DNA from: a virus
Reading direction: 5' to 3' (one strand)
Length of the DNA: 27,125 bases
Virus record (IMG/VR): IMGVR_UViG_3300042555_002425
Location: 1-27,125 of that record
A model generated the notes under the pieces. That model made no database searches. It was not told the DNA's origin and saw only the letters and a program-made list of their open reading frames with translations. Shown one piece after another: positions 2,149 through 26,488 of the stretch. How positions within the stretch are numbered: position 1 is the first letter of the stretch; every line of letters begins with the position of its first letter. A program made the translations under genes and the position numbers.

Positions 2149-4035
2149 CTACCAGTAGTTGCTAGTCCGACGCTTGGGTGGCCGCTGTGGCTTGGGAGTC
2201 TGAGCCTGTGCCTGTGCCAGCTGCGCCTCAAGCTGGTCCCACATGGTGCCCTTGGCATAGCCCCGCTTGGTTAGCTCCAACATCGCGAGGCAGTAGACCT
2301 CCATATCGAGCGGCTCGTTGCGGGCCTTTGATGGGTTCTTCCATTCATCTATTGCAAATCCTTTGGAATCAAATCTAGTTATCAGTTTTTCACACGTAAG
2401 GCCCTTGAGATATTCATCGCCGTACGTGGTCGCGTTCTGGCCGAAGTGCATAAAGCCCGGCCCCGGCTGCTCGATGCCCAGCCTGGCATACACGGTCCGC
2501 TTTAGCGTGTGAACGCCAACCATGTAAAGTGTGACGCCTTTCTTTATTACTCGACCGTTTTTGCTTACGTCTTGCTTTGTGCCTTTGCCTAGCGCCGGTG
2601 ATGCTTTATCGTTGCTTCCTTTGATTGCCACAACTCCCTCCTTGACCCTTTCACGGCAGTAGTCGTAAGCCTCATGCGTGAACGATCCTCCTGTGTCAAC
2701 GGCAGTTCGGCGAACCGCCATGCTGCCGCCGCCTTCGCGGGTAAATTCAGTCTTGCGGATTGCGTCGATCTGCCGCCATACCTCTTCTTGTGCCGGGTTT
2801 CCATATACTCTTTCATGCCAAATTAACCAGCTCTCCTCCCCCTTGCCGTACCCCTTTACCTGAATCTCAAGCCAGGTATTCTGAACATCGACCGCCGCCA
2901 GCAGCAGCAGCACGCCATCAGGGCAGAACCCTGTCGGGTATGGATTCAGCGCTGCCCGCTCCATCAGTCCATCGGCGCTCACCTTGGCGATGGCCTGGTC
3001 TTCCCAGGCCTCGGCGGCTCGTTTGTTGACCCAGCCCTTGAGCAACATCGTGTCGTCCTTGGCCCGCAAGAACTCGTCGCGGATCTTCTCCCAGCTCAGC
3101 CAGCCATAGGGGGCGTACCAGCCGGGGAGGTGAAACCCAGCCGTCTCCCCGTCTCCCTTCGCGTTGGCCCCCCACCGGCCGCCGGTCAGCATGGCGACCT
3201 TGTGGTGCTGGGCCAGCCGCTCACCGCAGGCCGGGCACTGGCACCACACCTCGCCATCCGGCCGATCCCACACCATGTGTTCCCGCCAGCGAAGCACCTC
3301 ACGCGACCCGCAGCAGGGCAGGAATGCCGCGTAACGGCGCTGGTCGCTCCTGGTCTCGAACTCCCACGTAATCCGACACGCCCCCCGGGTGCCCGGGGTA
3401 GATGTGATCAGCGTCTTTCGGTCTGGGAAGTTGGTCTGTCTCGCCTCAGCGTTCTCGATCGGGTCGCCCTTGTCGTCAATCTCAAGCGGCAGACTCGACG
3501 CCTCATCGACCCAGAGGTTCTGCGCCGGCATCCCCTGGGCGGCGCTGCCGCTGTTGCCGCCGATGATCGACAGCAGCATGTCCCCCTCAAACTCCTTGAG
3601 AAACATCGCGTTGGCTGCGTCCCGGCTCTTGGTGCTGATTTGCTTTGCCCGCACCGCCGGGGTGTCCTTGAACAAGGGATCAAGGCGCTGCCGCACCTGT
3701 CGCTTGGCGAATGCCTCGGTAGGGAACAGGATCAGGAACGGCGCGGGGTCCATGGCGATCGTCCGCCCCAACCAGTTGAGCCCGCACTCAGTCTTGGCTC
3801 CTGACTGGCTGCCGAAGATCAGGATCACGCGCCTGATCTTCTTCTCCCGAGGGCTCAGGAGGTCCATCGGCTCTTTCAGGAATGGCACGCGATCGGTGCG
3901 CCACTGGCCTGGCTCTGAACTGCTGCGGCGGGTGAGCTGCCGCTCAGCATCGGCCCACTCGCTCACAGTCAGATTCAGCGGCGGCTGAATGGCCTCGATG
4001 AAGGCATCCTCATAGGCCTGTGCGGCATCAGGCAT
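2149..4035 (-). CDS. Terminase large subunit, lambda gpA family
   Basis: This 628-residue protein is the ATP-driven DNA packaging motor and nuclease. The N-terminal ATPase has a Walker A-like GSQSGAKT (residues 75-82) and a Walker B LWVDEASS (about 174-181), followed by a motif III-like TLITSTPGT. A cysteine pair near PCCG and a CQCPACG cluster around residues 240-275 form the zinc-ribbon insert common in gpA proteins. The C-terminal nuclease begins near LLLLAAVDVQ, with an Asp expected at the active site. It overlaps the small-subunit gene by 8 bp. The family is lambda-like, so cos-type packaging is likely, though not shown by this sequence. Confidence 0.93.
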   Translation of the reverse strand: MPDAAQAYEDAFIEAIQPPLNLTVSEWADAERQLTRRSSSEPGQWRTDRVPFLKEPMDLLSPREKKIRRVILIFGSQSGAKTECGLNWLGRTIAMDPAPFLILFPTEAFAKRQVRQRLDPLFKDTPAVRAKQISTKSRDAANAMFLKEFEGDMLLSIIGGNSGSAAQGMPAQNLWVDEASSLPLEIDDKGDPIENAEARQTNFPDRKTLITSTPGTRGACRITWEFETRSDQRRYAAFLPCCGSREVLRWREHMVWDRPDGEVWCQCPACGERLAQHHKVAMLTGGRWGANAKGDGETAGFHLPGWYAPYGWLSWEKIRDEFLRAKDDTMLLKGWVNKRAAEAWEDQAIAKVSADGLMERAALNPYPTGFCPDGVLLLLAAVDVQNTWLEIQVKGYGKGEESWLIWHERVYGNPAQEEVWRQIDAIRKTEFTREGGGSMAVRRTAVDTGGSFTHEAYDYCRERVKEGVVAIKGSNDKASPALGKGTKQDVSKNGRVIKKGVTLYMVGVHTLKRTVYARLGIEQPGPGFMHFGQNATTYGDEYLKGLTCEKLITRFDSKGFAIDEWKNPSKARNEPLDMEVYCLAMLELTKRGYAKGTMWDQLEAQLAQAQAQTPKPQRPPKRRTSNYW

Positions 4036-4597
4036 CCTTGAGGCCCTTCAGTGCTCCCTCGATCTCTTGCTCAAGCAGGGCGCGCACATCCTCGGGATCA
4101 CTCATCGCCGCCAGCCTGGCCGCGTTGCGGCTTGGGATGATCAGCAGCAAGTCGCGCACCTGTCGCGCCAGCTTGGCGGCCCTGGTCCGCACCTCGCTCA
4201 GACTGCCAACCTCCTTTCTTTCCATCAGTGCGGCAAGCCTTGCGCGTTCTGCGTTGTAGTGCTCCTTTCTTTTGATGCTGACATCTATAGAAGGGATTTC
4301 ATCTTCTGGCAGCTCCTGAATAAAAGCCTGCAGATCCTTGTTGCTTGGGATGGCGCCCGGCGGCGAGACGCCTGCAGCAGGCGCAGTAAGTGCGGCAGGC
4401 GCCACAGGGCCTTTGCCCTTGTGGCTGTTGCGGACCTTCGCGGCATCCCATAAACGGTCGGCCACGTCGGAATCGATCAGCACCTTGCCGTCCCGCTCCA
4501 CAAGCGCTGGCTTGATGCGGACCTTCTTCGCGTCCTGAACCGTCGGGGCACTGCAGCCTCTGTGCCTGGCGTAGTCCGCCTGGTTCATCAACGGCAT
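4028..4597 (-). CDS. Terminase small subunit (Nu1/DUF1441-like)
   Basis: This 189-residue protein begins MPLMNQADYARHRGCSAPTV, a winged-helix-like N-terminal DNA-binding segment of the type found in Nu1-like small terminases. A Pro/Ala-rich linker follows at about residues 60-85. A helical C-terminal half (SIKRKEHYNAERARLAALME, then VRDLLLIIPSRNAARLAAM) is typical of the oligomerisation and large-subunit contact region. A purine-rich GAGG lies about 8 bp before the chosen ATG at 4597; the internal ATG three codons later is a possible alternative. It sits directly upstream of and overlaps the large subunit, which fits its role in recognising the packaging site. Confidence 0.8.
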   Translation of the reverse strand: MPLMNQADYARHRGCSAPTVQDAKKVRIKPALVERDGKVLIDSDVADRLWDAAKVRNSHKGKGPVAPAALTAPAAGVSPPGAIPSNKDLQAFIQELPEDEIPSIDVSIKRKEHYNAERARLAALMERKEVGSLSEVRTRAAKLARQVRDLLLIIPSRNAARLAAMSDPEDVRALLEQEIEGALKGLKDA

Positions 4598-4798
4598 GGC
4601 ATCGCCTCACCCCTTAGCCTCACCCTTAGGCTAAGCACTAACCTAATGCTAGGCGGGGACAGGCTGGGGTAGGGGTTTGTATAGCTTTAGGGCGATCAGA
4701 TAAGGCTAGCCTTGCCTCACTCGCTAGGAAAAATCTGGGATCGCTAGGACCGGCACTTAGTTTTTTGGGCCAAAGGACCCTGCGACCGGGGGCCACCC
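4598..4798. other. Non-coding gap with short repeats; cos/pac candidate
   Basis: No convincing gene lies in these 201 bases between the small terminase and the gpZ-like gene. The stretch is richer in A/T than its neighbours. It holds TCGCTAGGA twice (4721-4729 and 4741-4749, exactly 20 bp apart), the 12-bp palindrome AAGGCTAGCCTT (4702-4713), a further GCTAGG at 4648-4653, and CTTAG/CTAAG inverted copies near 4614-4640. Repeated GCTAGG-type boxes next to a small terminase resemble the terminase-binding part of cos sites. This is inference from position and repeats only. It would also have to hold the promoter or readthrough region for the packaging operon. Confidence 0.4.
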
Positions 4799-5434
4799 TT
4801 ACCGCCCGCCATACCCCCGGGCGATGTCGCCGAGCTTCTTCTCGAACCCTTTCCTGAACTCGTCGTTGATCAGTCGCGCTGCGTCGTTCTGCAGCCGCTG
4901 AGAGTGGCGCCCTTCACCCAGGAAGATCGAGCCGATCGAGGGGCCATAGACCGCGTGCAGTTTGCCCTGGCTGTCCTTGCGGAACACCACCTGATTGCCG
5001 CCGTTGCCGAGGGCAACGAACGCGCCACGGTAAGCCCTGCGCCCCTCGGCCCTGAGGATCGTGGCGGTGAGCGGTCGGCCTGGCTTGGCTGGCTTGCCCC
5101 ATCCCCTGCCGCGGCCTAGGCCAGGCTGGCCACTGCCTCTGGTGCCGGGCTTCATGCCGAACTGCGTGAGGGTTGGAGGGCGACGGCGAGAAAAGCTGAT
5201 CGTTGCCGATAGGCCATCAGGCGCGATGTATGCCCTGCTGATGTCTCGCTTGATCCGTGCCGCTTTCAGGTTGTAGGCCTCGCCGATGCCCTTGGCTACC
5301 TGCGTTTTGATTGCACCTGTGGCCTTGGCGATCCCTGCCCGGTTCGCCTTGGCGAAGGTCTTTGGGTCGGTGAACTGCAGCATCTTCTGCAGCTGGCTCA
5401 GCCCCTCGATCTTCAGCGTGATCCCCGCCATCAA
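4799..5434 (-). CDS. Minor tail protein, gpZ-like
   Basis: This 211-residue protein begins MMAGITLKIEGLSQLQKMLQ, then ADP-free helical text with AKANRAGIAKATGAIKTQVA and a C-terminal helix DAARLINDEFRKGFEKKLGD. The opening beta strand, 'gLxxLqkxL', and a conserved RAGIxxAtxxixtqva stretch are seen in the prophage minor tail protein Z group, which helps complete the tail before joining the head. A glycine- and basic-rich middle (RGSGQPGLGRGRGWGKPAKP) is unusual and probably a loop. Two adjacent ATGs (5434 and 5431) are both possible starts. A tail gene upstream of terminase is an odd position, which lowers certainty. Confidence 0.6.
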   Translation of the reverse strand: MMAGITLKIEGLSQLQKMLQFTDPKTFAKANRAGIAKATGAIKTQVAKGIGEAYNLKAARIKRDISRAYIAPDGLSATISFSRRRPPTLTQFGMKPGTRGSGQPGLGRGRGWGKPAKPGRPLTATILRAEGRRAYRGAFVALGNGGNQVVFRKDSQGKLHAVYGPSIGSIFLGEGRHSQRLQNDAARLINDEFRKGFEKKLGDIARGYGGR

Positions 5435-5470
5435 CCAATCCCCAATCCATGCCCCTAGTCTGCCGAGCCC

Positions 5471-5941
5471 TCAAGGCTTGGCGAATCGCTGCCGCCCATA
5501 GGCAGCGATCAGCGCAGCCTCGGCTACACCGTCGTCCTTCTTCCTGCTCCACAGGTGGGAGAAGGCTGGAAAGGTGCGGGTGGCGATTGCGATAGCCGCG
5601 GCCTTGTCCGCCGGGACGCTCATTGCCTTTTTCCACACCGCGGGGCGGACAATGGAGAAGGGGAGCATTCTGCCCACCAGAAATCCGCGCAGATCGCCAT
5701 AGTTTTGCCCGGTGCGGAATGACGATGCCACGCCCTGCCGCGGCATGGATTGCTGCTGCTCGATCCACGCGTGGCTTGGGTCCCATGCGGCGAGAGTGGC
5801 ACGCACCGCTGCGAGATCGATCTCGCCTTTGCCGTTGAGGGTGAGCACCGGCATAGGGATGGCGGCCAACTCATCGCCGCAAAGCAGCGCAAGCCCGCCG
5901 TTCAGGCCTGGGTCAATGCCGAGAATGCGAGGGTTCTCCAT
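5471..5941 (-). CDS. RuvC-like Holliday junction resolvase
   Basis: This 156-residue protein starts MENPRILGIDPGLNGGLALL. ILGIDPG is the first acidic motif of the RuvC/RNase H-like fold, AWIEQQ supplies the second acidic residue, and the C-terminal KKDDGVAEAALIAAYG supplies the terminal Asp cluster. Phage RuvC-like enzymes resolve branched DNA before or during packaging. The frame continues upstream to an ATG at 6133, but that extension has shadow-like composition and covers another gene, so I start at the ATG at 5941, 4 bp after the stop of the preceding gene. A general RNase H-like nuclease is the alternative. Confidence 0.8.
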   Translation of the reverse strand: MENPRILGIDPGLNGGLALLCGDELAAIPMPVLTLNGKGEIDLAAVRATLAAWDPSHAWIEQQQSMPRQGVASSFRTGQNYGDLRGFLVGRMLPFSIVRPAVWKKAMSVPADKAAAIAIATRTFPAFSHLWSRKKDDGVAEAALIAAYGRQRFAKP

Positions 5942-5945
5942 GCGC

Positions 5946-6152
5946 TCAGGATGGCGAGGCTGAGGGTAGATCGCCAGGGCCGATCCGGCGCTCGCACTCG
6001 AAGGCGATGATGACCGGCGGGTCGATCCAGCCCCAGTAGCCCGTAGCGGTGCGGCGCAGGCAGTCTTCGCAGCCCTCGCGCCAGTGCTGCTCGCCATCTT
6101 CAAAGCTGCCAACCCCAATGCAGCGGGCAACATCCGCGGGAGGTTCGCTCAC
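5946..6152 (-). CDS. Small Cys-containing phage protein
   Basis: This is a 68-residue protein read from a GTG at 6152 whose GTGA overlaps the stop of the upstream gene by 4 bp. It contains a conserved-looking EGCEDCLRRT segment with a CxxC pair and a preceding ARCIG cysteine, then PPVIIAFECERRIG, suggesting a small metal-binding module. I do not recognise a named family. It belongs to a tightly coupled run of tiny genes and lies 4 bp before the resolvase start. The longer frame up to 6521 has basic, serine-rich shadow composition and was not used. Confidence 0.6.
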   Translation of the reverse strand: MSEPPADVARCIGVGSFEDGEQHWREGCEDCLRRTATGYWGWIDPPVIIAFECERRIGPGDLPSASPS

Positions 6153-6304
6153 ACCACCGGCCCCAATCGCTTGATCACCCAGTGCGCGCCAGGGCCTGTG
6201 CGCCTGGTGGCGTCGAGCAACTGATAGGCTCGCAAGGCGGCCATGCGGCGGGAGACCCATGGTTGGGTGCAGATCCATCGGTCCTGAAGCTCGCGAGCGG
6301 TCAC
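6149..6304 (-). CDS. Tiny helix-turn-helix-like protein
   Basis: A 51-residue protein runs from a GTG at 6304 to a TGA at 6149. Both ends use 4-bp GTGA overlaps, with the 90-residue gene upstream and the 68-residue gene downstream, which is strong support for a real gene despite its size. The N-terminal part reads TARELQDRWICTQPWVSRRM followed by AALRAYQLL, resembling a helix-turn-helix in which PWVSRR would be the turn and recognition helix. The end is HWVIKRLGPVV, a possible wing strand. A small DNA-binding protein is likely; its target is unknown. Confidence 0.6.
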   Translation of the reverse strand: MTARELQDRWICTQPWVSRRMAALRAYQLLDATRRTGPGAHWVIKRLGPVV

Positions 6305-6573
6305 CTCGGAGCCTGGGCCAGGGTCGGCGGGGGCGGCGGGGGGCTGTGGAGGTTGTCGGCGATAGCCTCCAACCCAACAATCTGAGCATCAAAGCCGTAA
6401 TGCTCACATGCCTGCTTCGTCGCCTCCCGCAGAAATGCGGCCTGGCCTTTGCGGTTTGATTCGGTCCAATCCTTTTTGTAGCCTTCGTGCCATGGAAAGG
6501 CGACCTTATAGGCGGCAACAAGGCATTCCTTTGTTTCCGGCGTCAGCTCCGGGAACTCAACGTGGTTGCTCAT
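6301..6573 (-). CDS. Hypothetical phage protein, 90 aa
   Basis: The protein begins MSNHVEFPELTPETKECLVA and continues with aromatic/charged text (FPWHEGYKKDW, AAFLREATKQACEHYGFD). It ends in a proline run (SPPPPPPTLAQAPR). I do not recognise a family. The 4-bp ATGA overlap upstream and the GTGA overlap downstream place it in the same translationally coupled string. The composition is that of a soluble helical protein with a short disordered C-terminus. Confidence 0.65.
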   Translation of the reverse strand: MSNHVEFPELTPETKECLVAAYKVAFPWHEGYKKDWTESNRKGQAAFLREATKQACEHYGFDAQIVGLEAIADNLHSPPPPPPTLAQAPR

Positions 6574-6806
6574 GGCTCTGTCCCCTGCAACAGGAAAGCC
6601 GTGGCGTCCTGCAGCGACAAGGGCCGCCTTGCCAGCTGCTCAAGCGCAATCAGCTCGGCGGCCAGGCTTTGCTGAATGGCGATGACCATGGGCCTAATCC
6701 AGCTGCCGGGGCCGCCTTCAATCTCGTCGGCCTCCAAGATTGCGATAGTGGCCGTGGACACTAGGCGATCGGTGAGGGTGTCCTGGGTGGTGTCGTGGGT
6801 GCTCAT
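6570..6806 (-). CDS. Hypothetical phage protein, 78 aa
   Basis: This small acidic protein starts MSTHDTTQDTLTDRLVSTAT and continues with helical segments (AILEADEIEGG, IAIQQSLAAELIALEQLARR). It overlaps the upstream heptapeptide-repeat gene and the downstream 90-residue gene by 4 bp each (ATGA). No family is recognised. The pattern of amphipathic helices with few aromatic residues suggests a small helical bundle or a protein that pairs with a partner. Confidence 0.6.
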   Translation of the reverse strand: MSTHDTTQDTLTDRLVSTATIAILEADEIEGGPGSWIRPMVIAIQQSLAAELIALEQLARRPLSLQDATAFLLQGTEP

Positions 6807-7240
6807 GATTCTTCAGTCCAATCGGCGAGAGAGCACGGACGGGAATCTGTAGGAATGCCGGAGCAGTCGCCCGACAGGCCGGAGCAGTTGCCCGACAGGC
6901 CGGAGCAGTTGCCCCGCAGGCCGGAGCAGTTGCCCGACAGGCCGGAGCAGTTGCCCCACAGGTCGGAGCAGTCGCCCGACAGGCCGGAGCAGTTGCCCGA
7001 CAGGCCGGAGCAGTTGCCCCACAGGTCGGAGCAGTTGCCCCACAGGCCGGAGCAGTTGCCCCACAGGCCGGAGCAGTTGCCCGACAGGTCGGAGCAGTCG
7101 CCCGACAGGCCGGAGCAGTTGCCCGACAGGCCGGAGCAGTCGCCCGACAGGCCGGAGCAGTTACCTTCCTGCATTGCGCCAGTTTTGTCTACCCAATACA
7201 AACCAGGCGATGAAGCACGGCGAAGCGGTTTAGTTGTCAT
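6803..7240 (-). CDS. Heptapeptide-repeat protein ([N/D]CSGLxG repeats)
   Basis: This 145-residue protein consists of a short lead (MTTKPLRRASSPGLYWVDKT), about 15 tandem heptads of the form NCSGLSG, DCSDLWG or NCSGLRG, and a short tail ending ADWTEES. Position 1 is N/D, 2 is Cys, 3 Ser, 5 Leu and 7 Gly in nearly every unit; position 6 varies (S, W, R). The regularity suggests a beta-solenoid or stacked-turn rod, with the Cys and Leu columns facing inward. It overlaps both neighbours by 4 bp, so it is a true operon member. The repeats are also near-perfect at DNA level (21 bp). Function is unknown; a fibre- or adhesin-like role would be a guess. Confidence 0.75.
   Translation of the reverse strand: MTTKPLRRASSPGLYWVDKTGAMQEGNCSGLSGDCSGLSGNCSGLSGDCSDLSGNCSGLWGNCSGLWGNCSDLWGNCSGLSGNCSGLSGDCSDLWGNCSGLSGNCSGLRGNCSGLSGNCSGLSGDCSGIPTDSRPCSLADWTEES
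6857..7162. repeat. 21-bp tandem repeat array inside the heptapeptide gene
   Basis: The plus strand reads units such as GCCGGAGCAGTCGCCCGACA plus one base, starting at 6857 and recurring exactly every 21 bp to 7151. That gives 14 full units and a partial fifteenth. Variation is limited to a few positions (gtcgcc/gttgcc, cgac/ccac, ggcc/ggtc). Such an array can gain or lose units by slippage without changing the reading frame. Confidence 0.95.
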
Positions 7241-7874: not shown

Positions 7875-8795
7875 TCAAACAAAACCAGGCTCAGCAGCCC
7901 GAGCGCGGTAGGTCGCCCAGGCCCCAGCCCATGCCAAGCGCATCTCCTCGACGCCGTAGAGGGGGCTGAAGGTGGCCTGGCCAGGGCGGGCCCAGATGGT
8001 CTGCCCGTAGTCGTACCAGTTGCGAGCCGGGCCGTGGTTCTCAAGGCTGTGGTAGCCCCCCAGCTGGGCGGCTGTGGAGTAGGTGGCGGGCTTGGACACC
8101 TTCAGCTCTGCAGCGTCGCCAGCGGCCAGCAAAAGGGCCGGCGCAGGCATCAGGGGGTCCCAGGTGGATGAACGGGTGGCGCGGATCTCCACGTGGCCTC
8201 CTGAGAGGCGTGCGGCGGCTGTGTCTGCTGGCACCTCGGCGAGCTCCGACCAATCCCTGGCCCCAGCGCGGCGCCACTTGGCCACGGCCGCCCCCAGCGA
8301 CTTGAGGTCAGCCAGCACCCGGGCGGGGCCGGTGACCCATTGCGGGCGGAGCGGTGATGGGGGCATGACTGGATCCAGGAAGGCCACATCGAAGGTGCCG
8401 GCCACCTTGCGGCGCAGGCAGCAGGTTGGGCGCTCGCTGGCGATCACCTGCACCTGGCTCCAGCGGTCGTGGGTGACCAGGGGGGCGATCCAGTGGACGT
8501 AATCGCCCTGCATGAGCTCCACCATCTCGGTGGCTTCATCGGCCAGGCCGCCAGGCCACGGGCCGCTGTGCTCCAGCAGCAGATGCAACTCCAGTGCCCT
8601 GTGACAGCTGTTGCCCCTGGGCTCCCAGGTGGCGCGGGTGGCCTCGATGCGATCCATGGCGTAATCCGATTTGAGCACCGAAAGCACGCCTGTGACCGAG
8701 ACCGGGAACGACACATCCCCGAGCCAGTACCAGTGCCCGGGGTCGCGCCGGTGCAGGCCGGGGATCGGGGGGAGCCAGGTGGTGGGGGTGGTCAT
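7875..8795 (-). CDS. PD-(D/E)XK exonuclease, RecB-like
   Basis: This 306-residue protein carries the core of the RecB-type nuclease fold. RGNSCHRALELHLLLE (about residues 60-75) is the 'GxxxHxxlE' entry helix, VAGTFDVAFLD (131-141) provides the first catalytic Asp, VLADLKSLG (160-168) is the D-x-K motif, and QLGGYHSL (244-251) is the QxxxY motif typical of this clade. In phages such enzymes resect double-stranded DNA ends for recombination, usually beside an annealing protein or SSB. It lies between the primase gene and the small-gene string. The ATG at 8795 gives a natural start, MTTPTTWLPPIPGLHRRDPG. Confidence 0.8.
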   Translation of the reverse strand: MTTPTTWLPPIPGLHRRDPGHWYWLGDVSFPVSVTGVLSVLKSDYAMDRIEATRATWEPRGNSCHRALELHLLLEHSGPWPGGLADEATEMVELMQGDYVHWIAPLVTHDRWSQVQVIASERPTCCLRRKVAGTFDVAFLDPVMPPSPLRPQWVTGPARVLADLKSLGAAVAKWRRAGARDWSELAEVPADTAAARLSGGHVEIRATRSSTWDPLMPAPALLLAAGDAAELKVSKPATYSTAAQLGGYHSLENHGPARNWYDYGQTIWARPGQATFSPLYGVEEMRLAWAGAWATYRARAAEPGFV

Positions 8796-13334: not shown

Positions 13335-13579
13335 CCCCCAGGGCATGGCCGGCTTGGACCGCCGACTATCACCCTCCAGGGCGACGCCATCCACTGCCCG
13401 GCCCAGGCGGTGGGATCAAGTAGCCGAGTGTAAGCGGCTGCCGATGGCCTCTCACCTGAATTTGGACCCGTCGAGGTCAATCGCTGGCGCCAAGGGTGCG
13501 ATGCCCTATATGGAGCGATTGCAAAGGGTGTGCCTGTAAGCCCCTGCATTTTTCCACATCCCATACCCCACCACCTCAG
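13335..13579 (+). other. Gap with a possible decayed gene remnant
   Basis: No intact gene is supported here. In the frame of the previous gene's stop, the text GPPTITLQGDAIHCPAQAVG runs up to a TAA at 13431-13433. It resumes in the same frame with FGPVEVNRWRQGCDALYGAI and AKGVPVSPC. Both pieces look like real protein (a short beta strand, then an amphipathic helix), but there is no start codon and there is an in-frame stop, so this may be a relic of a small phage gene. Confidence 0.3.
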
Positions 13580-14005
13580 ATGCCTGAATCACCACCACTC
13601 AATCTGCGCGGCGCCGATCTGGGCGGCGCCAATCTGCGCGGCGCCAATCTGCGCGGCGCCAATCTGGGCGGCGCCAATCTGCGCGGCGCCAATCTGCGCG
13701 GGTGTACTGGTATCGCCATCGCAGCCGATGCTCCTCAACGCATCAAGGCCGCCGCGGCTGCCGCGCTTCAAGACGGCGCGCTGGAGATGGGCGCCTGGCA
13801 CAGCTGCGACACCAAACACTGCCTAGGTGGCTGGCTGATCCACCAAGCCGGGGAGGTTGGCAGGTTGCTTGAGGTGGCAGTCGGCTCGGGCGTCGCCGGC
13901 CTAATGCTCGGCGGCCTCGAAGCTCACAGCCATTTTTACGACAGCAACGAAGCCGCTTCCGAGTGGCTGCGTTCGGTGCTGGCGCAGCCTGAGGTAAAGC
14001 CGTGA
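13580..14005 (+). CDS. Pentapeptide-repeat protein with HCxGGW domain
   Basis: Starting at the ATG at 13580, the 141-residue protein opens MPESPPLNLRGADLGGANLR and has about seven A(N/D)LxG pentapeptides, which fold as a right-handed quadrilateral beta helix. The rest (about residues 50-141) carries GAWHSCDTKHCLGGWLIHQA and FYDSNEAASEWL. I recall a W-x-C-x-T-x-HC-x-(A/G)GW segment of this kind in small cyanobacterial and phage proteins of unknown function. The GGCGCCAATCTGSGC DNA repeat underlies the pentapeptides. Its stop overlaps the next gene's GTG by 4 bp. Confidence 0.75.
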   Translation: MPESPPLNLRGADLGGANLRGANLRGANLGGANLRGANLRGCTGIAIAADAPQRIKAAAAAALQDGALEMGAWHSCDTKHCLGGWLIHQAGEVGRLLEVAVGSGVAGLMLGGLEAHSHFYDSNEAASEWLRSVLAQPEVKP

Positions 14006-21939: not shown

Positions 21940-22764
21940 ATGGCCTCTACCGGCGATGACACGATCGCTTATTGGCTGGGGCAGGCCGGCCGGGTTCCGC
22001 TTCTCTCCGCCGCCGAGGCCATCCACCTCGGCGCTCTGGTGAGGAGGTGGCAGGACTGGGAGCCCAGCCCTGACGAGGCCCCTGCAGCAGTCCGCCGCCG
22101 GGGCCTCCGGGCCCGCGACCGGATGGTGTCAGCCAATCTGCGGCTGGTCGTCTCGGTCGCCAAGGAATGCTCCTACCACGACGCGCCCTTAATCGATCGG
22201 TTCCAGAGCGGCTCGCTCGGGCTGGCGCGAGCGGTTGAGAAGTTTGATCCCAGCAGGGGTTACACCTTCGCCACCTACGCCTATTGGTGGATCCGCCAGG
22301 CGATTGACAAAGGGGAGCTGGACGAAAAAACGATTCGGCTCCCAGGCCCGGCTCACGCCGCCCTCCGTGGCCGCAGGAACGGGGCCTGTCCCGCTCACCT
22401 GCTGGAGGCCGCCCTGTCCGTGGCCAGCTTGCTGTCGCTGGATTCTCCGGTCCCCGGGAACGACCGCGACCTAGGCGAGACGCTCGCCGCGCCGACGCCG
22501 GGGCCAGGGTTTGACGCCGAGGAGCTGGACGCCCGGCTGATGTGCCTGGACCCGATCGAGCTCCGGCTGATCGGCGGCCGTTGGGGGCTGAAGGGGCAGC
22601 GTCGCACCCTCTCTCAGCTCGCCGCTCAGGAGGCCGTTTCTCAAGGCGAGGTGCGGAAGCTGCTGGCCATCGCCATGGCCAAGATGCGGGGGGAGCCGGT
22701 GCCGGTGGCGGTGGCGAGGCGGAAGCCCAGGCCGAGGCCGTTGGGTCCGCCGCCGCATCTGTAG
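21940..22764 (+). CDS. Phage sigma-70-family RNA polymerase sigma factor
   Basis: This 274-residue protein carries DTIAYWLGQAGRVPLLSAAE (region 1.2-like) and RARDRMVSANLRLVVSVAKE (2.1). LIDRFQSGSLGLARAVEKFD and PSRGYTFATYAYWWIRQAID (2.2-2.4) are the core polymerase- and -10-binding helices. The C-terminal part has LMCLDPIELRLIGGRWGLKG and QRRTLSQLAAQEAVSQGEVR, a region 4 HTH that reads the -35 box. Region 3 seems shortened, and the tail (about 30 residues) is basic and Pro-rich. It probably directs the host polymerase to phage promoters. The ATG at 21940 is 3 bp after the previous stop. Confidence 0.9.
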   Translation: MASTGDDTIAYWLGQAGRVPLLSAAEAIHLGALVRRWQDWEPSPDEAPAAVRRRGLRARDRMVSANLRLVVSVAKECSYHDAPLIDRFQSGSLGLARAVEKFDPSRGYTFATYAYWWIRQAIDKGELDEKTIRLPGPAHAALRGRRNGACPAHLLEAALSVASLLSLDSPVPGNDRDLGETLAAPTPGPGFDAEELDARLMCLDPIELRLIGGRWGLKGQRRTLSQLAAQEAVSQGEVRKLLAIAMAKMRGEPVPVAVARRKPRPRPLGPPPHL

Positions 22765-22823
22765 GAGCCATGCCGGGCGGTAGAGGGCTGCCAGCTCAGC
22801 CTCGGACTTTCGACTCTGAACCC

Positions 22824-23903
22824 ATGAGTCTCCGCATGATCGACACCTTCAGCGGTATCGGCGGCTTCAGCCTCGCCGCTCGCTGGCTGGGCGGGATTGA
22901 AACCGTGCAGTTTGTGGAGCGTGAGCCGTTCTGCCAGCGCATCCTCGCCAAACACTGGCCCACTGTTCCTATTCACGATGACATCTGCACCTTCCAACCC
23001 CCCCCCAATTCAGCCGACATTGTTTGCGGTGGATTCCCTTGCCAGGACATCAGCCAAGCCGGGAAGGGCGCCGGCCTGGCTGGCAGCCGATCGGGCCTTT
23101 TCTACGAACTGCTCAGAGTCGTTTGCCTTGTGGGACCGCGCTACGTCGTCTTGGAGAACGTCGCAGCGATCACTTACCGAGGGATGGACGACGTTCTCGG
23201 AGCGCTGGCCGAGGCAGGGTATGACGCTGAATGGGCGTGCATACCGGCAGCGGCTGTGGGTGCCTGCCATCAGCGGGACCGCTGGTGGTGCGTTGCCTAC
23301 GCCCAGGGCCGCGCAAGGGATGCTTCACCGCCTCCGGAGTCCAGAGGCGATCGGGGACCATCAAAGCAGGCTGGAGGATTTCATTGCGATGTTGCCCACA
23401 CCAAGAACATGCTCAGCCACGGCGGCTTCGGTCAACAGCAGGGGCAACATCGAGGGCGATCGGTTTCCGAATCTGGAGACAGTGATTGGGCGAATGCTTC
23501 CGACCCCATCAGCCTGCCTGGCAAACGACGGAGAACGCACGGAGACGTGGCTGGCCAGGCGGGAGCGGGTCAAAGCCATAAGGATGAACGGCAACGGGAT
23601 GGGAATGCCGCTGGCGATTGCTGCGCAACTCCTGACTCCATGCGCCAGCGACTGGAAAGGCCGGACGAACTGGGAGGCAGCAGGGCGCCATGGCCCGCAG
23701 CGATTGCCCGATTGTCTCCCGACTGGCGCAGCTACCTATCTGAACCCGTCCTTTGTCGAGGAGATGATGGGCTATCCGGTCGGGTGGACCGCCTGAAGGC
23801 GCTGGGCAATGCCGTGGTGCCTCAGGTGGCGATGGTGCCGCTGGCGCGGGTGCTGGAGCTGGAGTCATGCCTCAGCTTCCCAACCCCCGCAGCCACCCCA
23901 TAA
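22824..23903 (+). CDS. DNA cytosine-5 methyltransferase (Dcm type)
   Basis: This 359-residue enzyme transfers a methyl group from S-adenosylmethionine to cytosine C5. DTFSGIGGFSLAARW (7-21) binds AdoMet (motif I), GGFPCQDIS (69-77) holds the catalytic Cys (motif IV), LENVAA (110-115) is motif VI, QRDRWW (150-155) is motif VIII, and LKALGNAVVPQ (from 324) is motif X. The variable target-recognition stretch is about 165-310. An in-frame ATG at 22770 would add 18 residues. The gene's +1 frame contains a second long protein-like ORF (22978-23796). The 3' end overlaps the convergent minus gene by 32 bp. Confidence 0.9.
   Translation: MSLRMIDTFSGIGGFSLAARWLGGIETVQFVEREPFCQRILAKHWPTVPIHDDICTFQPPPNSADIVCGGFPCQDISQAGKGAGLAGSRSGLFYELLRVVCLVGPRYVVLENVAAITYRGMDDVLGALAEAGYDAEWACIPAAAVGACHQRDRWWCVAYAQGRARDASPPPESRGDRGPSKQAGGFHCDVAHTKNMLSHGGFGQQQGQHRGRSVSESGDSDWANASDPISLPGKRRRTHGDVAGQAGAGQSHKDERQRDGNAAGDCCATPDSMRQRLERPDELGGSRAPWPAAIARLSPDWRSYLSEPVLCRGDDGLSGRVDRLKALGNAVVPQVAMVPLARVLELESCLSFPTPAATP
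22978..23796 (+). CDS. Overlapping +1-frame ORF of the Dcm gene ('ARTSA/SSWRTSQ/LPTP' protein)
   Basis: Read in the +1 frame of the methyltransferase from an ATG at 22978, 272 residues are open. The text has the features of a known hypothetical phage protein type as I remember it: LARTSAKPGRAPAW (21-34), ATSSWRTSQRSL (55-66), FSERWPRQGMTLNGRAYR (73-90), several LPTP boxes (ALPTPR, MLPTPRT, MLPTPSA, LTPCASDWKGR), and a C-terminal LNPSFVEEMMGYPVGWTA. Each block falls on the +1 frame of a Dcm motif (CQDISQA, VLENVA, AEAGYDAEW, SEPVLCRGDDG). Whether it is translated is unknown; no Shine-Dalgarno sequence is evident. Confidence 0.45.
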   Translation: MTSAPSNPPPIQPTLFAVDSLARTSAKPGRAPAWLAADRAFSTNCSESFALWDRATSSWRTSQRSLTEGWTTFSERWPRQGMTLNGRAYRQRLWVPAISGTAGGALPTPRAAQGMLHRLRSPEAIGDHQSRLEDFIAMLPTPRTCSATAASVNSRGNIEGDRFPNLETVIGRMLPTPSACLANDGERTETWLARRERVKAIRMNGNGMGMPLAIAAQLLTPCASDWKGRTNWEAAGRHGPQRLPDCLPTGAATYLNPSFVEEMMGYPVGWTA

Positions 23904-24135: not shown

Positions 24136-24342
24136 GACCACCGCAGCAGCTCAGCCTCCTCAGTCTGATGAGCCCGTCGAGGCCTACGTGCTGCTGCACC
24201 GTGACACCGGCATGGTCTTGTACTCGACCCATGCCACCGCCACCGCAGTCCACCGGGCAAACCAGCGCCTCGGGGAGTGCGGTGTGCGGCATCGATACGT
24301 GGCCGCCAGGCTGCTGCCGCATGGGGGGGGGTGGAGGCGTGA
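24134..24342 (+). pseudogene. Small gene broken at a G9 tract and split by methyltransferase insertion
   Basis: The ATG at 24134 opens MTTAAAQPPQSDEPVEAYVL, then LHRDTGMVLYSTHATATAVH and RHRYVAARLLPHG, good protein text of about 65 residues. At 24323-24331 a run of nine G throws the frame into shadow text to 24538. With one more G (or two fewer) the frame would end at the TGA of GTGA (24339-24342), a 4-bp overlap with the methyltransferase GTG. The segment encoding ARLLPHG is duplicated after the methyltransferase gene, where the reading frame continues as VAEANQPPSCQTDT and stops. Confidence 0.5.
24303..24326. repeat. 24-bp direct repeat, left of methyltransferase
   Basis: CCGCCAGGCTGCTGCCGCAT followed by four G; matches 25356-25379 at 23 of 24 positions. 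The two copies flank the adenine/cytosine methyltransferase gene. Confidence 0.9.
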
Positions 24343-25352
24343 CGCTGGCCCTGCACCTTGGCGACTGCCTCGACGTGTTGCGCACCCTGCCCGATTGCAG
24401 CGTGGATGCGGTGGTGACCGATCCGCCGTACTACCGCGTCAAGGGAGAGGATTGGGATCGCCAATGGGACAACCCAGAGGCTTTCTTGATTTGGCTAGAT
24501 CAGGTCGCCGAGCAATGGCAACGGGTTCTCAGGCCTAACGGGTCGCTCTATTGCTTTGCCTCCCCGCAAATGGCGGCACGGGTTGAGGTGATGCTGGGGC
24601 GGCGGTTCCAGGTGCTGAACTCGCTGGTGTGGTCCAAGCCTTTTGCTATGCACAATCGTGCGTGCAAGGAAAGCCTGCGGTCCTATTTTCCCGCCACCGA
24701 GCGCATCGTCTTTGCCGAGCAGTTCGGGGCGGATGGCGCGGCTATGGACGGAAGCGGCTACAGCGGCGCCTGCGATAGATTGCGGGGGTTCGTGTTTGAG
24801 CGGCTTCGGCTTTACCTTGACAGCGAGCGCGAAGCGGCTGGCTTCACCGTTCGGCAGGTGGCTGAAGCCTTCCAGGCCAAGTCCGGCAGTCGCACAGTTA
24901 CCGGGATGGCGGGGCACTGGTTCAGCCGTGTTCAGTGGACTTTGCCCACGGCCGAGAATTACGCCTGGCTGCAGGACTTATTCAGCTACGAGTACCTCCG
25001 GCGCGAGTACGAGGACCTCCGGCGCGAGTACGAGGACCTCCGGCGCCCGTTCAGCGTCACCCGTTTTGATCCGTTCACCGATGTTTGGACCTTCCGCACT
25101 GTTCAGGCACGGCCAGGGAAGCACCCATGCGAGAAGCCTCAGGCACTGCTCCGGCACATCATCGGCAGCAGCACCAGGCCCGGCGCCTTAGTGCTCGACT
25201 CTTTTGCCGGCAGCGGAGCAACGGGCCAGGCCTGTCTTGCCTTGGGCCGGGAGTTCATCGGCATTGAGCGCTGCCCCCACTGGCACCGCGTCGCGTCCCA
25301 GTCGCTGAAAGCGATTCAGCCCGACCTGTTCAGCTCAGGCTGCGCAGCATGA
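24339..25352 (+). CDS. N4/N6 DNA methyltransferase (beta class)
   Basis: The 337-residue enzyme (GTG at 24339; an ATG at 24321 would add six residues, mostly Gly) starts VTLALHLGDCLDVLRTLPDC. TDPPYY (27-32) is catalytic motif IV, and DSFAGSGATGQA (from 287) is the AdoMet-binding motif I. This IV-before-I order defines the beta class, which methylates adenine N6 or cytosine N4. The target-recognition region contains EYLRREYEDLRREYEDLRRP, encoded by two exact 21-bp repeats (25005-25046) and a third partial copy. It probably protects phage DNA or regulates it. No restriction partner is visible. Confidence 0.88.
   Translation: MTLALHLGDCLDVLRTLPDCSVDAVVTDPPYYRVKGEDWDRQWDNPEAFLIWLDQVAEQWQRVLRPNGSLYCFASPQMAARVEVMLGRRFQVLNSLVWSKPFAMHNRACKESLRSYFPATERIVFAEQFGADGAAMDGSGYSGACDRLRGFVFERLRLYLDSEREAAGFTVRQVAEAFQAKSGSRTVTGMAGHWFSRVQWTLPTAENYAWLQDLFSYEYLRREYEDLRREYEDLRRPFSVTRFDPFTDVWTFRTVQARPGKHPCEKPQALLRHIIGSSTRPGALVLDSFAGSGATGQACLALGREFIGIERCPHWHRVASQSLKAIQPDLFSSGCAA
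25005..25046. repeat. Two 21-bp tandem repeats in the methyltransferase recognition domain
   Basis: GAGTACGAGGACCTCCGGCG plus C occurs at 25005-25025 and 25026-25046, with a shorter related unit at 24990-25004. Each adds EYEDLRR to the protein. Confidence 0.9.
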
Positions 25353-25423
25353 TCACCGCCAGGCTGCTTCCGCATGGGGTGGCGGAGGCAAATCAGCCGC
25401 CTTCCTGCCAGACCGACACATAG
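25349..25423 (+). pseudogene. Displaced 3' end of the small gene at 24134
   Basis: A 24-residue frame, MITARLLPHGVAEANQPPSC then QTDT, starts in an ATGA overlap with the methyltransferase stop. Its ARLLPHG segment is the same as that at 24303-24326 and in the same phase. Joining the left copy to this one would restore an intact protein of about 78 residues. Its 3' end overlaps the convergent transpeptidase gene by 31 bp. Confidence 0.5.
25356..25379. repeat. 24-bp direct repeat, right of methyltransferase
   Basis: Second copy of 24303-24326, one mismatch. Confidence 0.9.
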
Positions 25424-26115
25424 ATGGTCCCCATCTGGGCCAAGGGGAGCACGCGATCCCTGAGGTCCTTGTTGTGCATCCGAATGCACCCGAGCGTGGG
25501 ATGGAGCGGCTGCAGTGGCAGCCACGCGCCAGGCCATCCGCAGGCGGTGCCGCCCCCGTGGATCATGATGCCGTCCCGCCCGTCCCGGCTGCCTGGCCCT
25601 TCCTGCCCTTCCATGCCCTCCAGGTCGAACGAAAACCACCCATAGGAACGCCGATCGATTGAGAAGGTAGTGGTCGGATCAGCCTCGTAATCCCGATAGA
25701 TGGCGCCGACGCGATAAAGCCCCGGCGGGGTGTCGCTGCTGCGCGATCTCCAGTCCGTCTCGGTGGACTGCCCCCGCGCCAGGGCCGCCACCTTCCAGAG
25801 CTGCTGCCCCTTGTGATCAAAAGCGGCGATCGTTTCGGCCCGGTCGTCCATCACCAGGTGGTGATCACCGGGCTTCAGGTGGGGCCGCCTCTTCGGCCCC
25901 ACCAGCCCGACCCGCTGCGGCTCGGGTGCTGGCGGCTTCGGTGCCGCCGCCGGGCTGCCCGCGGCCCTCCAGTCCGCCGTAAAAGCGCGGCGCTGCTCAG
26001 GCGTCAGAGCCTGATCCAGGGCCGAGAACGCAGCCAGCTGATGGGGCTCCAGCTTGCCAGCCTTGACGGCGTGCTCGACGGCGGCGCGGACTGATGCGGT
26101 GGTGAGGTTGGTCAT
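25393..26115 (-). CDS. L,D-transpeptidase-type (YkuD) wall enzyme
   Basis: From the ATG at 26115 the 240-residue protein begins MTNLTTASVRAAVEHAVKAG. The N-terminal 50 residues are helical (QLAAFSALDQALTPEQRRAF), followed by an Ala/Pro linker (54-66). The C-terminal catalytic domain has the YkuD signature: GIMIHGGG (182-189, His186) and HPTLGCIRMHNKDL (205-218, Cys210). Such enzymes cut or cross-link peptide stems of peptidoglycan. There is no signal peptide, and it sits next to tail genes, so it may be a virion-associated or lysis enzyme rather than a housekeeping transpeptidase. Confidence 0.8.
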   Translation of the reverse strand: MTNLTTASVRAAVEHAVKAGKLEPHQLAAFSALDQALTPEQRRAFTADWRAAGSPAAAPKPPAPEPQRVGLVGPKRRPHLKPGDHHLVMDDRAETIAAFDHKGQQLWKVAALARGQSTETDWRSRSSDTPPGLYRVGAIYRDYEADPTTTFSIDRRSYGWFSFDLEGMEGQEGPGSRDGRDGIMIHGGGTACGWPGAWLPLQPLHPTLGCIRMHNKDLRDRVLPLAQMGTIYVSVWQEGG

Positions 26116-26119
26116 GGGG

Positions 26120-26488
26120 TCATCCAACAGAGAGCAGGGACACGGCCACGTCGTAGAGACCCCCGTCCAATGGGGTTTCCTCCGGAGGGCCGGAATAGCG
26201 CCAGACAAACCCGATCGGCACCACGTCGTAGCGGTTGCTGTGCATGCGCCAGAGATGAACCGGGATTGTGAACGACCGGGTGAGACCGTGGGCGTCGAAG
26301 TGGCCGGTGATCTGCCGGGCCTTGGTCAGCGACAGGGCCGGGAAGCCCAGGACCATGGGCACGTCCACCGCAACGGTGCCATGCAGGAACCGCGTCTCGT
26401 CCCCGTTGTTGAAGCTGGCCGTGCTGATTGGATGCGCCCCCAGGTCGTAGGAGCGCTTCAGCGGCTCGATGGAGGGGAAGATCGTCAT
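26120..26488 (-). CDS. Putative tail protein, 122 aa
   Basis: The protein begins MTIFPSIEPLKRSYDLGAHP and continues STASFNNGDETRFLHGTVAV, VPMVLGFPALSLTKARQITG and WRYSGPPEETPLDGGLYDVA, ending SLLSVG. The order 'FPS-x-P-x-R-x-Y-x-x-G', a GFPALS helix and a final WRYxGPP beta region resembles small tail/baseplate-type proteins as I remember them. It lies 1 bp from a structural-type gene and 4 bp from the wall enzyme. The family call rests on pattern and position. Confidence 0.55.
   Translation of the reverse strand: MTIFPSIEPLKRSYDLGAHPISTASFNNGDETRFLHGTVAVDVPMVLGFPALSLTKARQITGHFDAHGLTRSFTIPVHLWRMHSNRYDVVPIGFVWRYSGPPEETPLDGGLYDVAVSLLSVG

What the first reader, a model, noticed from the sequence alone, without database searches (positions are those of the whole stretch)
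6803..7240. Heptapeptide-repeat rod protein built of 21-bp units
Fifteen [N/D]CSGLxG heptads with an invariant Cys column and near-identical DNA repeats are not the usual pentapeptide repeat. The regular Cys/Leu/Gly pattern suggests a distinct solenoid whose length can change by unit gain or loss. It sits unexpectedly in a run of small regulatory-type genes.
Basis: partly seen in the sequence, partly recalled or inferred. Interest (0 to 1): 0.5.

Follow-up and report, generated by a model that had tools for sequence, protein, structure and literature searches.

The report
Fast-changing phage heptad-repeat rod protein
A virus of bacteria carries a small gene made of near-identical seven-amino-acid units, one of a large family of phage proteins that probably fold into a stiff rod and change length and surface quickly, so it is a good lead on a new phage tool and not yet a solved one.

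Summary
The array is real: minus strand 7240-6803, 145 aa, N-cap, 14 full [N/D]CS[G/D]L[S/W/R]G heptads, a broken 15th and a C-cap, in a gene run with 4-bp overlaps. It belongs to a large phage family that I did not find described: 126 distinct ORFs with four or more units in the fetched loci (cut copies included, 11 loci doubtful). Position 2 is Cys or Val, so Cys is probably buried and not a ligand. AlphaFold2 on 70 rows gives a beta-solenoid (repeat blocks pLDDT 76-88) without a significant Foldseek match. Unit number changes fast: contig pairs about 99.9% identical outside the arrays carry 16 versus 24, or 28 versus 34, units. Codons 1, 4 and 6 evolve near or slightly above neutral; 2, 3, 5 and 7 are constrained; 12 of 72 arrays have no synonymous change (3.4 expected). 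Named neighbours are mostly recombination and replication genes. Best reading: an accessory solenoid rod of the early module with a rapidly reshuffled surface, probably binding a host target. Fold moderately supported, function inferred. Main rivals: passive spacer; coiled coil, since a Bacillus phage minor capsid protein has similar heptads without the glycines.

The parts
6803..7240 (-). heptad-repeat gene, 145 aa
   Evidence: relatives with the same architecture
7163..7240 (-). N-cap MTTKPLRRASSPGLYWVDKTGAMQEG, like the N-caps of relatives (pattern read by eye)
6869..7162 (-). 14 complete 21-bp units, [N/D]CS[G/D]L[S/W/R]G
6803..6868 (-). broken 15th unit plus C-cap (DCSGIPTDSRPCSLADWTEES) and stop; the same type of cap in L002, L003, L011, L018, L019
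7237..7590 (-). upstream gene, 117 aa, unknown function, ATGA overlap with the heptad gene; homologue in the same place in L011 and L002
6570..6806 (-). downstream gene, 78 aa, unknown function, ATGA overlap
6301..6573 (-). gene of 90 aa, unknown function, ATGA overlap
5471..6133 (-). Holliday junction resolvase (RuvC-like)
   Evidence: PHROG 1770 E 7.8e-25
7875..8795 (-). exonuclease (weak PHROG 298 match)
   Evidence: E 5e-5; homologue upstream of the heptad gene in L011
9098..11728 (-). DUF3987 protein, DNA helicase-like
   Evidence: Pfam PF13148 E 6.7e-41, PHROG 36873 E 4.9e-33

Best explanation
An accessory protein of the phage's recombination/replication gene module that folds as a capped beta-solenoid rod: each heptad is a short strand C/V-S/T-x-L-x followed by a tight Gly-[Asn/Asp] turn, probably two heptads (14 residues) per coil, with C/V and L buried and positions 1, 4 and 6 exposed. 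Because the units of one array are nearly identical DNA, recombination or slippage adds, deletes and copies whole units, so that rod length and surface pattern change within a phage lineage while buried residues, turn glycine and caps are kept. The rod most likely binds or blocks a host macromolecule during infection (counter-defence or host takeover), with selection tolerating or favouring new surface patterns. Shown: architecture, family, unit differences between assemblies, constraint pattern, gene context. Predicted: fold. Inferred: coil size, buried or exposed positions, early expression, mechanism of unit change, target binding.
For: Family with two main cap types and 5 to 34 units in the ORFs seen. 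Unit differences between contigs nearly identical outside the arrays: L045/L046 99.96% over 4811 bp, 16 vs 24 units, reading as one eight-unit duplication, and a second array 6 vs 11; L098/L126 99.86% over 7013 bp, 28 vs 34; L109/L132/L121 99.96-99.99%, 9/10/5; L006/L007 100% over 9967 bp with one G-to-D change at position 4 in the array. Codon events over 72 arrays: codons 2, 3, 5 omega-like 0.44 and codons 1, 4, 6 1.25 at kappa 2; codon 7 has 0 nonsynonymous of 70 events, but Gly was imposed by the search. 12 of 72 arrays have no synonymous event against 3.4 expected under neutrality, in phages of GC 0.35-0.65 with different codons. AlphaFold2 mean pLDDT 71.9, pTM 0.60; VIA second look: Ag43b Z 9.4, rmsd 2.8, 126 aligned. 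Neighbour families: YqaJ/RecE nucleases, ERF/Sak annealing proteins, helicases, resolvases, methylases. Same order DUF3987, exonuclease, orf117, heptad gene, TerS, TerL in L011.
Against: No experiment or annotation gives a function. The excess of nonsynonymous change depends on the assumed transition bias (P 0.30 at kappa 1, 0.007 at 2, 1e-5 at 4), the events are not fully independent, over all seven codons the synonymous fraction (0.335) is not below the neutral 0.29, and pN exceeds pS in only 37 of 82 arrays. A family profile matches coiled coils among PDB sequences, and PHROG 19577, matched by 49 of 70 relatives, is a Bacillus phage minor capsid protein with D-V-S-x-L heptads. Unit order shows no clear coil period (largest z 2.4). 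Window and L002 (14 vs 25 units) are 99.0% identical over 2438-6319 but about 91% in the alignments that include the array. Arrays come from assemblies, some of which break inside them.
Confidence: 0.42

Rival explanations
1. Passive spacer or scaffold rod: same fold, but surface positions are simply unconstrained and unit number drifts by slippage; no selected target.
For: Codons 1, 4, 6 are close to neutral at kappa 1 (omega-like 1.05); unit order looks random; unit number varies from 8 to 34 among the 75 arrays counted there.
Against: 12 of 72 arrays without synonymous events against 3.4 expected; two or three paralogues in some phages (L009, L019, L045) suggest use; similar caps across the family.
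Confidence: 0.25
2. Trimeric coiled-coil fibre, possibly of the virion: position 2 (C/V) is a, position 5 (L) is d, as in phage tail needles and some minor capsid proteins.
For: The spacing of 3 and 4 fits; the family profile matches SlaB 8qox (7.1e-11) and tail needle gp26 4lin (6.6e-10); Pfam LPP matches 21 of 70 members, PHROG 1219 tail needle 16 of 70 and PHROG 19577 minor head protein 49 of 70, best 1.1e-16. That PHROG is full length Bacillus phage BSP18 putative minor capsid protein 1 (E 7.2e-239), whose repeats read DVSTLKTDMTTAKSDISTLKS: same residues at 1, 2, 3 and 5.
Against: Position 7 is Gly in 1000 of 1005 units where that count did not impose it, and position 4 is Gly in 55%, both absent from the BSP18 repeats; Gly twice in seven residues disfavours a helix. 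AlphaFold2 gives no helix in the repeats. Named neighbours shown are mostly not virion genes (first 25 families of each).
Confidence: 0.18
3. DNA-mimic inhibitor in the manner of Ocr or MfpA/Qnr: an acidic rod that blocks restriction, gyrase or another DNA enzyme.
For: Rod-like predicted fold; QnrB1, EfsQnr and MfpA are among the structural neighbours (Z 7.1, 6.6, 6.3); Asp in 62% of position 1; mean charge -0.29 per unit, negative in 62 of 75 arrays.
Against: The charge is weak (window repeats -5 over 14 units, L003 repeats +1) and Arg is the commonest residue at position 6; the tool warns that Z under 8 may mean only a common arrangement.
Confidence: 0.08
4. Assembly artefact: the differences in unit number are errors of assembly in 21-bp repeats.
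For: 39 of 126 parsed ORFs touch an end of their fetched stretch, and one contig breaks inside its array at both ends (L004/L005).
Against: Differences are whole units with caps in frame, and unit types mark the copied block in L045/L046. It would explain only the length change, not the family or the codon pattern.
Confidence: 0.07

Closest known systems
Pentapeptide repeat proteins (PF00805; MfpA, Qnr)
   Same: short-unit solenoid of stacked coils with free outer positions (predicted here); a pentapeptide protein occurs in the same window and near the heptad gene in some relatives
   Different: seven-residue unit with Gly-[Asn/Asp] turn and C/V-x-x-L core, not [STAV][DN][LF][STR]G; no PF00805 match for the window protein; about 14, not 20, residues per coil (inferred)
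Grass antifreeze beta-roll (LbR_Ice_bind, PF21300)
   Same: short Asn/Val/Gly repeats, 14-15 residues per coil (recalled)
   Different: different residue order (recalled); weak matches only: window E 0.37 and 11.3 bits against a cut-off of 30; 12 of 70 relatives, best E 7.7e-5
Bacillus phage BSP18 minor capsid protein 1 (PHROG 19577) and tail needle gp26: heptad coiled-coil type
   Same: D-V-S-x-L heptads in BSP18; sequence profile matches
   Different: no Gly at positions 4 and 7; virion gene by annotation; coiled coil is recalled for gp26 and assumed for BSP18
Haloarchaeal virus VP2 heptapeptide repeat (HCIV-1, PMC4958249, passages seen)
   Same: viral heptapeptide repeats with conserved flanks
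   Different: unit DXAARGY, described there as characteristic of coiled-coil proteins

Membership tests
Pentapeptide repeat proteins | tandem pentapeptides [STAV][DN][LF][STR]G (consensus as quoted in PMC8145042, passages seen) | tested here: not met
   period is 7 residues / 21 bp; no PF00805 match to the window protein at E up to 1
Pentapeptide repeat proteins | right-handed quadrilateral helix, 20 residues per coil | tested here: inconclusive
   solenoid predicted, Qnr and MfpA at Z 6.3-7.1; span ratio suggests about 14 residues per coil; coordinates not available to me
LbR_Ice_bind (grass antifreeze beta-roll) | profile match above the curated cut-off | tested here: not met
   window 11.3 bits against 30; relatives' bit scores were not listed
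Trimeric coiled coil (gp26 / PHROG 19577 type) | helical heptads with a/d hydrophobics | tested here: inconclusive
   sequence profile matches but predicted beta and Gly-rich; the window protein itself has no PHROG match
Major surface glycoprotein (PF02349) | profile match above the curated cut-off | tested here: met
   38.3 bits against 22, best stretch covers profile positions 3-40 of 76; 50 of 70 relatives match; the exact reverse, one hand-made scramble and three exact shuffles do not match
Major surface glycoprotein (PF02349) | surface protein of Pneumocystis with signal and anchor (recalled) | tested here: not met
   a virus record; no hydrophobic leader or anchor seen by eye in the sequence
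DNA mimic proteins (Ocr, MfpA type) | strong negative surface charge (recalled) | tested here: inconclusive
   -5 over 14 units in the window, family mean -0.29 per unit: weakly acidic; surface not computed
DNA mimic proteins (Ocr, MfpA type) | inhibits a DNA-binding enzyme | not testable with these tools
   needs biochemistry

The most novel reading that the evidence does not exclude
The array is a modular recognition rod: each heptad shows a few exposed residues from a small alphabet (N/D, then G/D/R and others, then S/W/R and others), and the phage re-arranges units by recombination to follow a changing host target, comparable in logic to TALE or other modular repeat codes but on a seven-residue beta-solenoid.
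Probability: 0.11. Interest if true: 0.82.

Novelty: new variant of a known kind. Interest (0 to 1): 0.5.

Why it matters
It looks like a phage protein family that the libraries searched do not recognise convincingly (the matches in Pfam, PHROGs and NCBIfam are to heptad-type or unlikely families) and that is nearly missing from the phage records searched: one clear member found in 50,697 (MW202691; BLAST masks repeats, so this is a lower bound), itself listed with a spring as source and no host. If the rod binds a host factor, the array is a readable record of a phage-host contest and a simple natural scaffold with exchangeable seven-residue modules. The length and surface hypothesis can be tested directly with long reads and with laboratory expression.

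Tried and rejected
Cys as metal ligand or disulphide ladder: rejected as a general role, since Val replaces it in about 30% of units. RiPP precursor (NCBIfam TigB matches 44 of 70 relatives, best 6.7e-14): rejected, window score 16.3 against a cut-off of 70, and Val members lack the Cys. Diversity-generating retroelement: rejected by eye, because the second A of the AAC codon never changes in the window array; I did not search for a reverse transcriptase. Coil period from unit order: 77 arrays, lags 1-8, no clear period (largest z 2.4, R6-R6 at lag 2). First AlphaFold2 model on 12 sequences was poor (pLDDT 54.7); its PDB search gave nothing at E 0.001. No family's absence from the fold lists is taken as a difference of fold.

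tblastn with a Val-type relative (L065) gave 182 phage records (70 rows seen, with overlap). Four look-alikes were read: BSP18 and MT835826 are coiled-coil-like heptads, S-RIM2 is a VTGN-type repeat, the Priestia plasmid protein is a SHAEG-type repeat; a Salmonella plasmid match lies antisense to its annotated gene. None of these five has the G-[DN]-[CV]-[ST]-x-L-x-G unit; the other records were not checked one by one. A relative's C-cap alone (26 aa) found nothing. After the first check of this report I raised the coiled-coil rival (0.13 to 0.18) and lowered the best reading (0.45 to 0.42), the other rivals and the novel case slightly, because.

Literature: motif strings as text (27 papers, none on this by title and start of abstract); 'heptapeptide repeat' with solenoid or beta-helix terms (0 papers); with phage terms (5,319 papers hold two terms, 20 listed); 'seven-residue repeat' with 'solenoid' (0); tandem-repeat terms (28 papers, 10 listed). 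No description found in these; a description elsewhere is possible.

Rows dropped: one search left out five near-duplicate arrays of 82; one search left out 11 doubtful loci (L031, L034, L038, L043, L047, L049, L054, L057, L076, L077, L137) and four near-duplicate loci; the same and L001 (the window's own copy); searches left out near-duplicates, leaving 72 of 82 arrays, the window's array among those left out in favour of L002. The 82 arrays contain near-duplicates, both ends of one gene (L004, L005) and a few doubtful loci. Neighbour scan: 34 loci chosen, 30 gave 124 ORFs (same strand, 120 aa or more, at most five per locus); only the first 25 families of 74 and of 189 were shown.

Full report
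What is there. The window is a 27,125-base virus record. On the minus strand, 7240-6803 encodes a 145-residue protein: an N-cap of 26 residues, 14 complete heptads, a 15th that breaks off, and a C-cap. TRF scores the 21-bp array at 521 with 14.6 copies and 92% matches. Start and stop overlap the neighbouring genes by ATGA at 7237-7240 and 6803-6806, and the next pair does so at 6570-6573 (sequence, ORFs), so it is part of a tight gene run.

Family. One protein scan of viral contigs gave 12 loci, most with the same plan in the ORFs read. Scans for three tandem heptads gave 66 stretches with Cys and 46 with Val in viral contigs, and 9 with Cys in a collection of one genome for each of 84,980 bacterial and archaeal species, of which three (L029 Prolixibacteraceae, L032 Desulfovibrio, L033 Patescibacteria) show arrays with caps. 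In all, 126 distinct ORFs of four or more units were parsed, the window's own included; 39 touch an end of their stretch and I regard 11 loci as doubtful. Over 1255 units the positions are D/N 91%, C 67% or V 30%, S/T 98%, free (G 55%), L/I 99%, free (R 38%, S 23%), G 99.8% (the units were found with patterns that favour this make-up). Two main kinds of C-cap recur, read by eye: GDLDxCEITDEERxxGVDIxDLI and IPxxxRPCxLxDWVxE; the window has the second. A strict text pattern found the first in 46 and the second in 19 of 114 ORFs of five or more units, and the N-cap in 44; 29 of 114 showed neither cap by that pattern, some being cut or doubtful.

Not in the usual libraries. Pfam gives MSG at 1.5e-9, a Pneumocystis surface family (50 of 70 relatives). 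The exact reverse, a scramble and three shuffles do not match, so it is not composition alone; I read it as a chance agreement of Cys and Leu spacing, since Val members belong to the same family. PHROGs had no match for the window protein. Of the relatives, 49 of 70 match PHROG 19577, best 1.1e-16; this is full-length Bacillus phage BSP18 minor capsid protein 1, whose heptads (DVSTLKT, DISTLKS) share positions 1, 2, 3 and 5 but lack both glycines. Of 50,697 phage records, MW202691 is the only clear member I found; BLAST masks repeats, so others may be missed.

Evolution. Near-identical contigs differ by whole units: L045/L046 (99.96% over 4811 bp) have 16 and 24 units, which reads as one duplication of eight units, and 6 and 11 in the next paralogue; L098/L126 (99.86% over 7013 bp) have 28 and 34. 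L006 and L007 are identical over 9967 bp outside the gene and their arrays differ by one residue, G to D at position 4. The window and L002 have 14 and 25 units; they are 99.0% identical over 2438-6319 but about 91% in alignments that include the array. Within arrays, pS is zero in 14 of 82, two genes or phages being counted twice or more there; pN exceeds pS in 37 of 82. After removing near-duplicates, 375 synonymous and 743 nonsynonymous events are counted in 72 arrays, a synonymous fraction of 0.335 against a neutral 0.29; 12 arrays have no synonymous event against 3.4 expected. Codons 1, 4 and 6 carry 595 nonsynonymous and 150 synonymous events, omega-like 1.05, 1.25 or 1.46 for kappa 1, 2 or 4 (P 0.30, 0.007, 1e-5); codons 2, 3 and 5 0.41-0.48. 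So the outer positions are free or weakly favoured to change and the inner ones are held. The zero-synonymous arrays occur at GC 0.35 to 0.65 with different codons, which fits repeated homogenisation of each array from its own unit.

Fold. With 70 in-register rows AlphaFold2 reaches mean pLDDT 71.9 and blocks of 76-88 over residues 31-120: in the better-formed half a five-residue strand C-S-x-L-x and a Gly-[Asn/Asp] turn per heptad, in the other half shorter bridges at the same places. No Foldseek match reaches E 0.001. VIA puts antigen 43b first (Z 9.4, 126 aligned, rmsd 2.8) and many beta-helices at Z 6-8, a level at which the tool warns of chance. The spans (124 model residues against about 180 of QnrB1, whose coil is 20 residues) suggest about 14 residues, two heptads, per coil; this is inference. 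A coiled coil remains the structural rival: a profile of the family matches SlaB and tail-needle sequences, and BSP18 has similar heptads; the near-invariant Gly at position 7 and the beta prediction speak against it.

Place and role. In the window the gene lies between an exonuclease and a Holliday junction resolvase, with small unnamed genes on both sides, and L011 has the same order from DUF3987 to TerL. Among 124 neighbouring ORFs from 30 loci, the commonest families shown are YqaJ/RecE nucleases, helicases, ERF/Sak annealing proteins, NinB, HNH and methylases; a few are virion proteins, and most families were not shown. The large terminase is nearest to Synechococcus phages S-CBS3 and S-CBS1; no annotated gene of S-CBS3 between 18,000 and 33,004 is named as a repeat protein and the window protein finds no match in the phage collection (masking applies), so the gene seems to be accessory. 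From this I infer an early, non-virion role, with binding of a host factor as the likeliest use; nothing here demonstrates it.

Verdict.

Noticed in passing
13496-14005 (+), array 13600-13701: A pentapeptide-repeat protein (NLRGADLGGANLRGA...) with a 15-bp tandem array (6.8 copies) in the same phage: two different short-repeat proteins in one genome. Pfam Pentapeptide also matches 2 of 124 neighbours of heptad genes.
   Followed up: partly
24987-25046, inside ORF 24168-25352 (+): A second 21-bp tandem repeat (2.9 copies) encoding YEDLRRE-type heptads in an ORF with a DPPY motif (DNA methylase motif, recalled).
   Followed up: no
22542-23903 (+): ORF with a DTFSGIGGFSLA motif that looks like a C5-cytosine methylase (motif recalled), overlapped by another long ORF in a second frame.
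   Followed up: no
25393-26208 (-): ORF ending with an HGGG...LGCIRM motif that looks like an L,D-transpeptidase (motif recalled).
   Followed up: no
L009, L019, L045, L056, L135, L124: Two or three heptad genes in one stretch, in L009, L019 and L045 close together and in L124 on opposite strands.
   Followed up: partly
6309-6640: Between window and L002 identity drops from 99% to patches in this stretch (orf90 only 48% identical in protein), which looks like a recombination border beside the heptad gene.
   Followed up: partly
L077: A stretch of a 115,719-base contig with several ORFs of looser GDVSxIxG heptads, perhaps a more distant branch.
   Followed up: no
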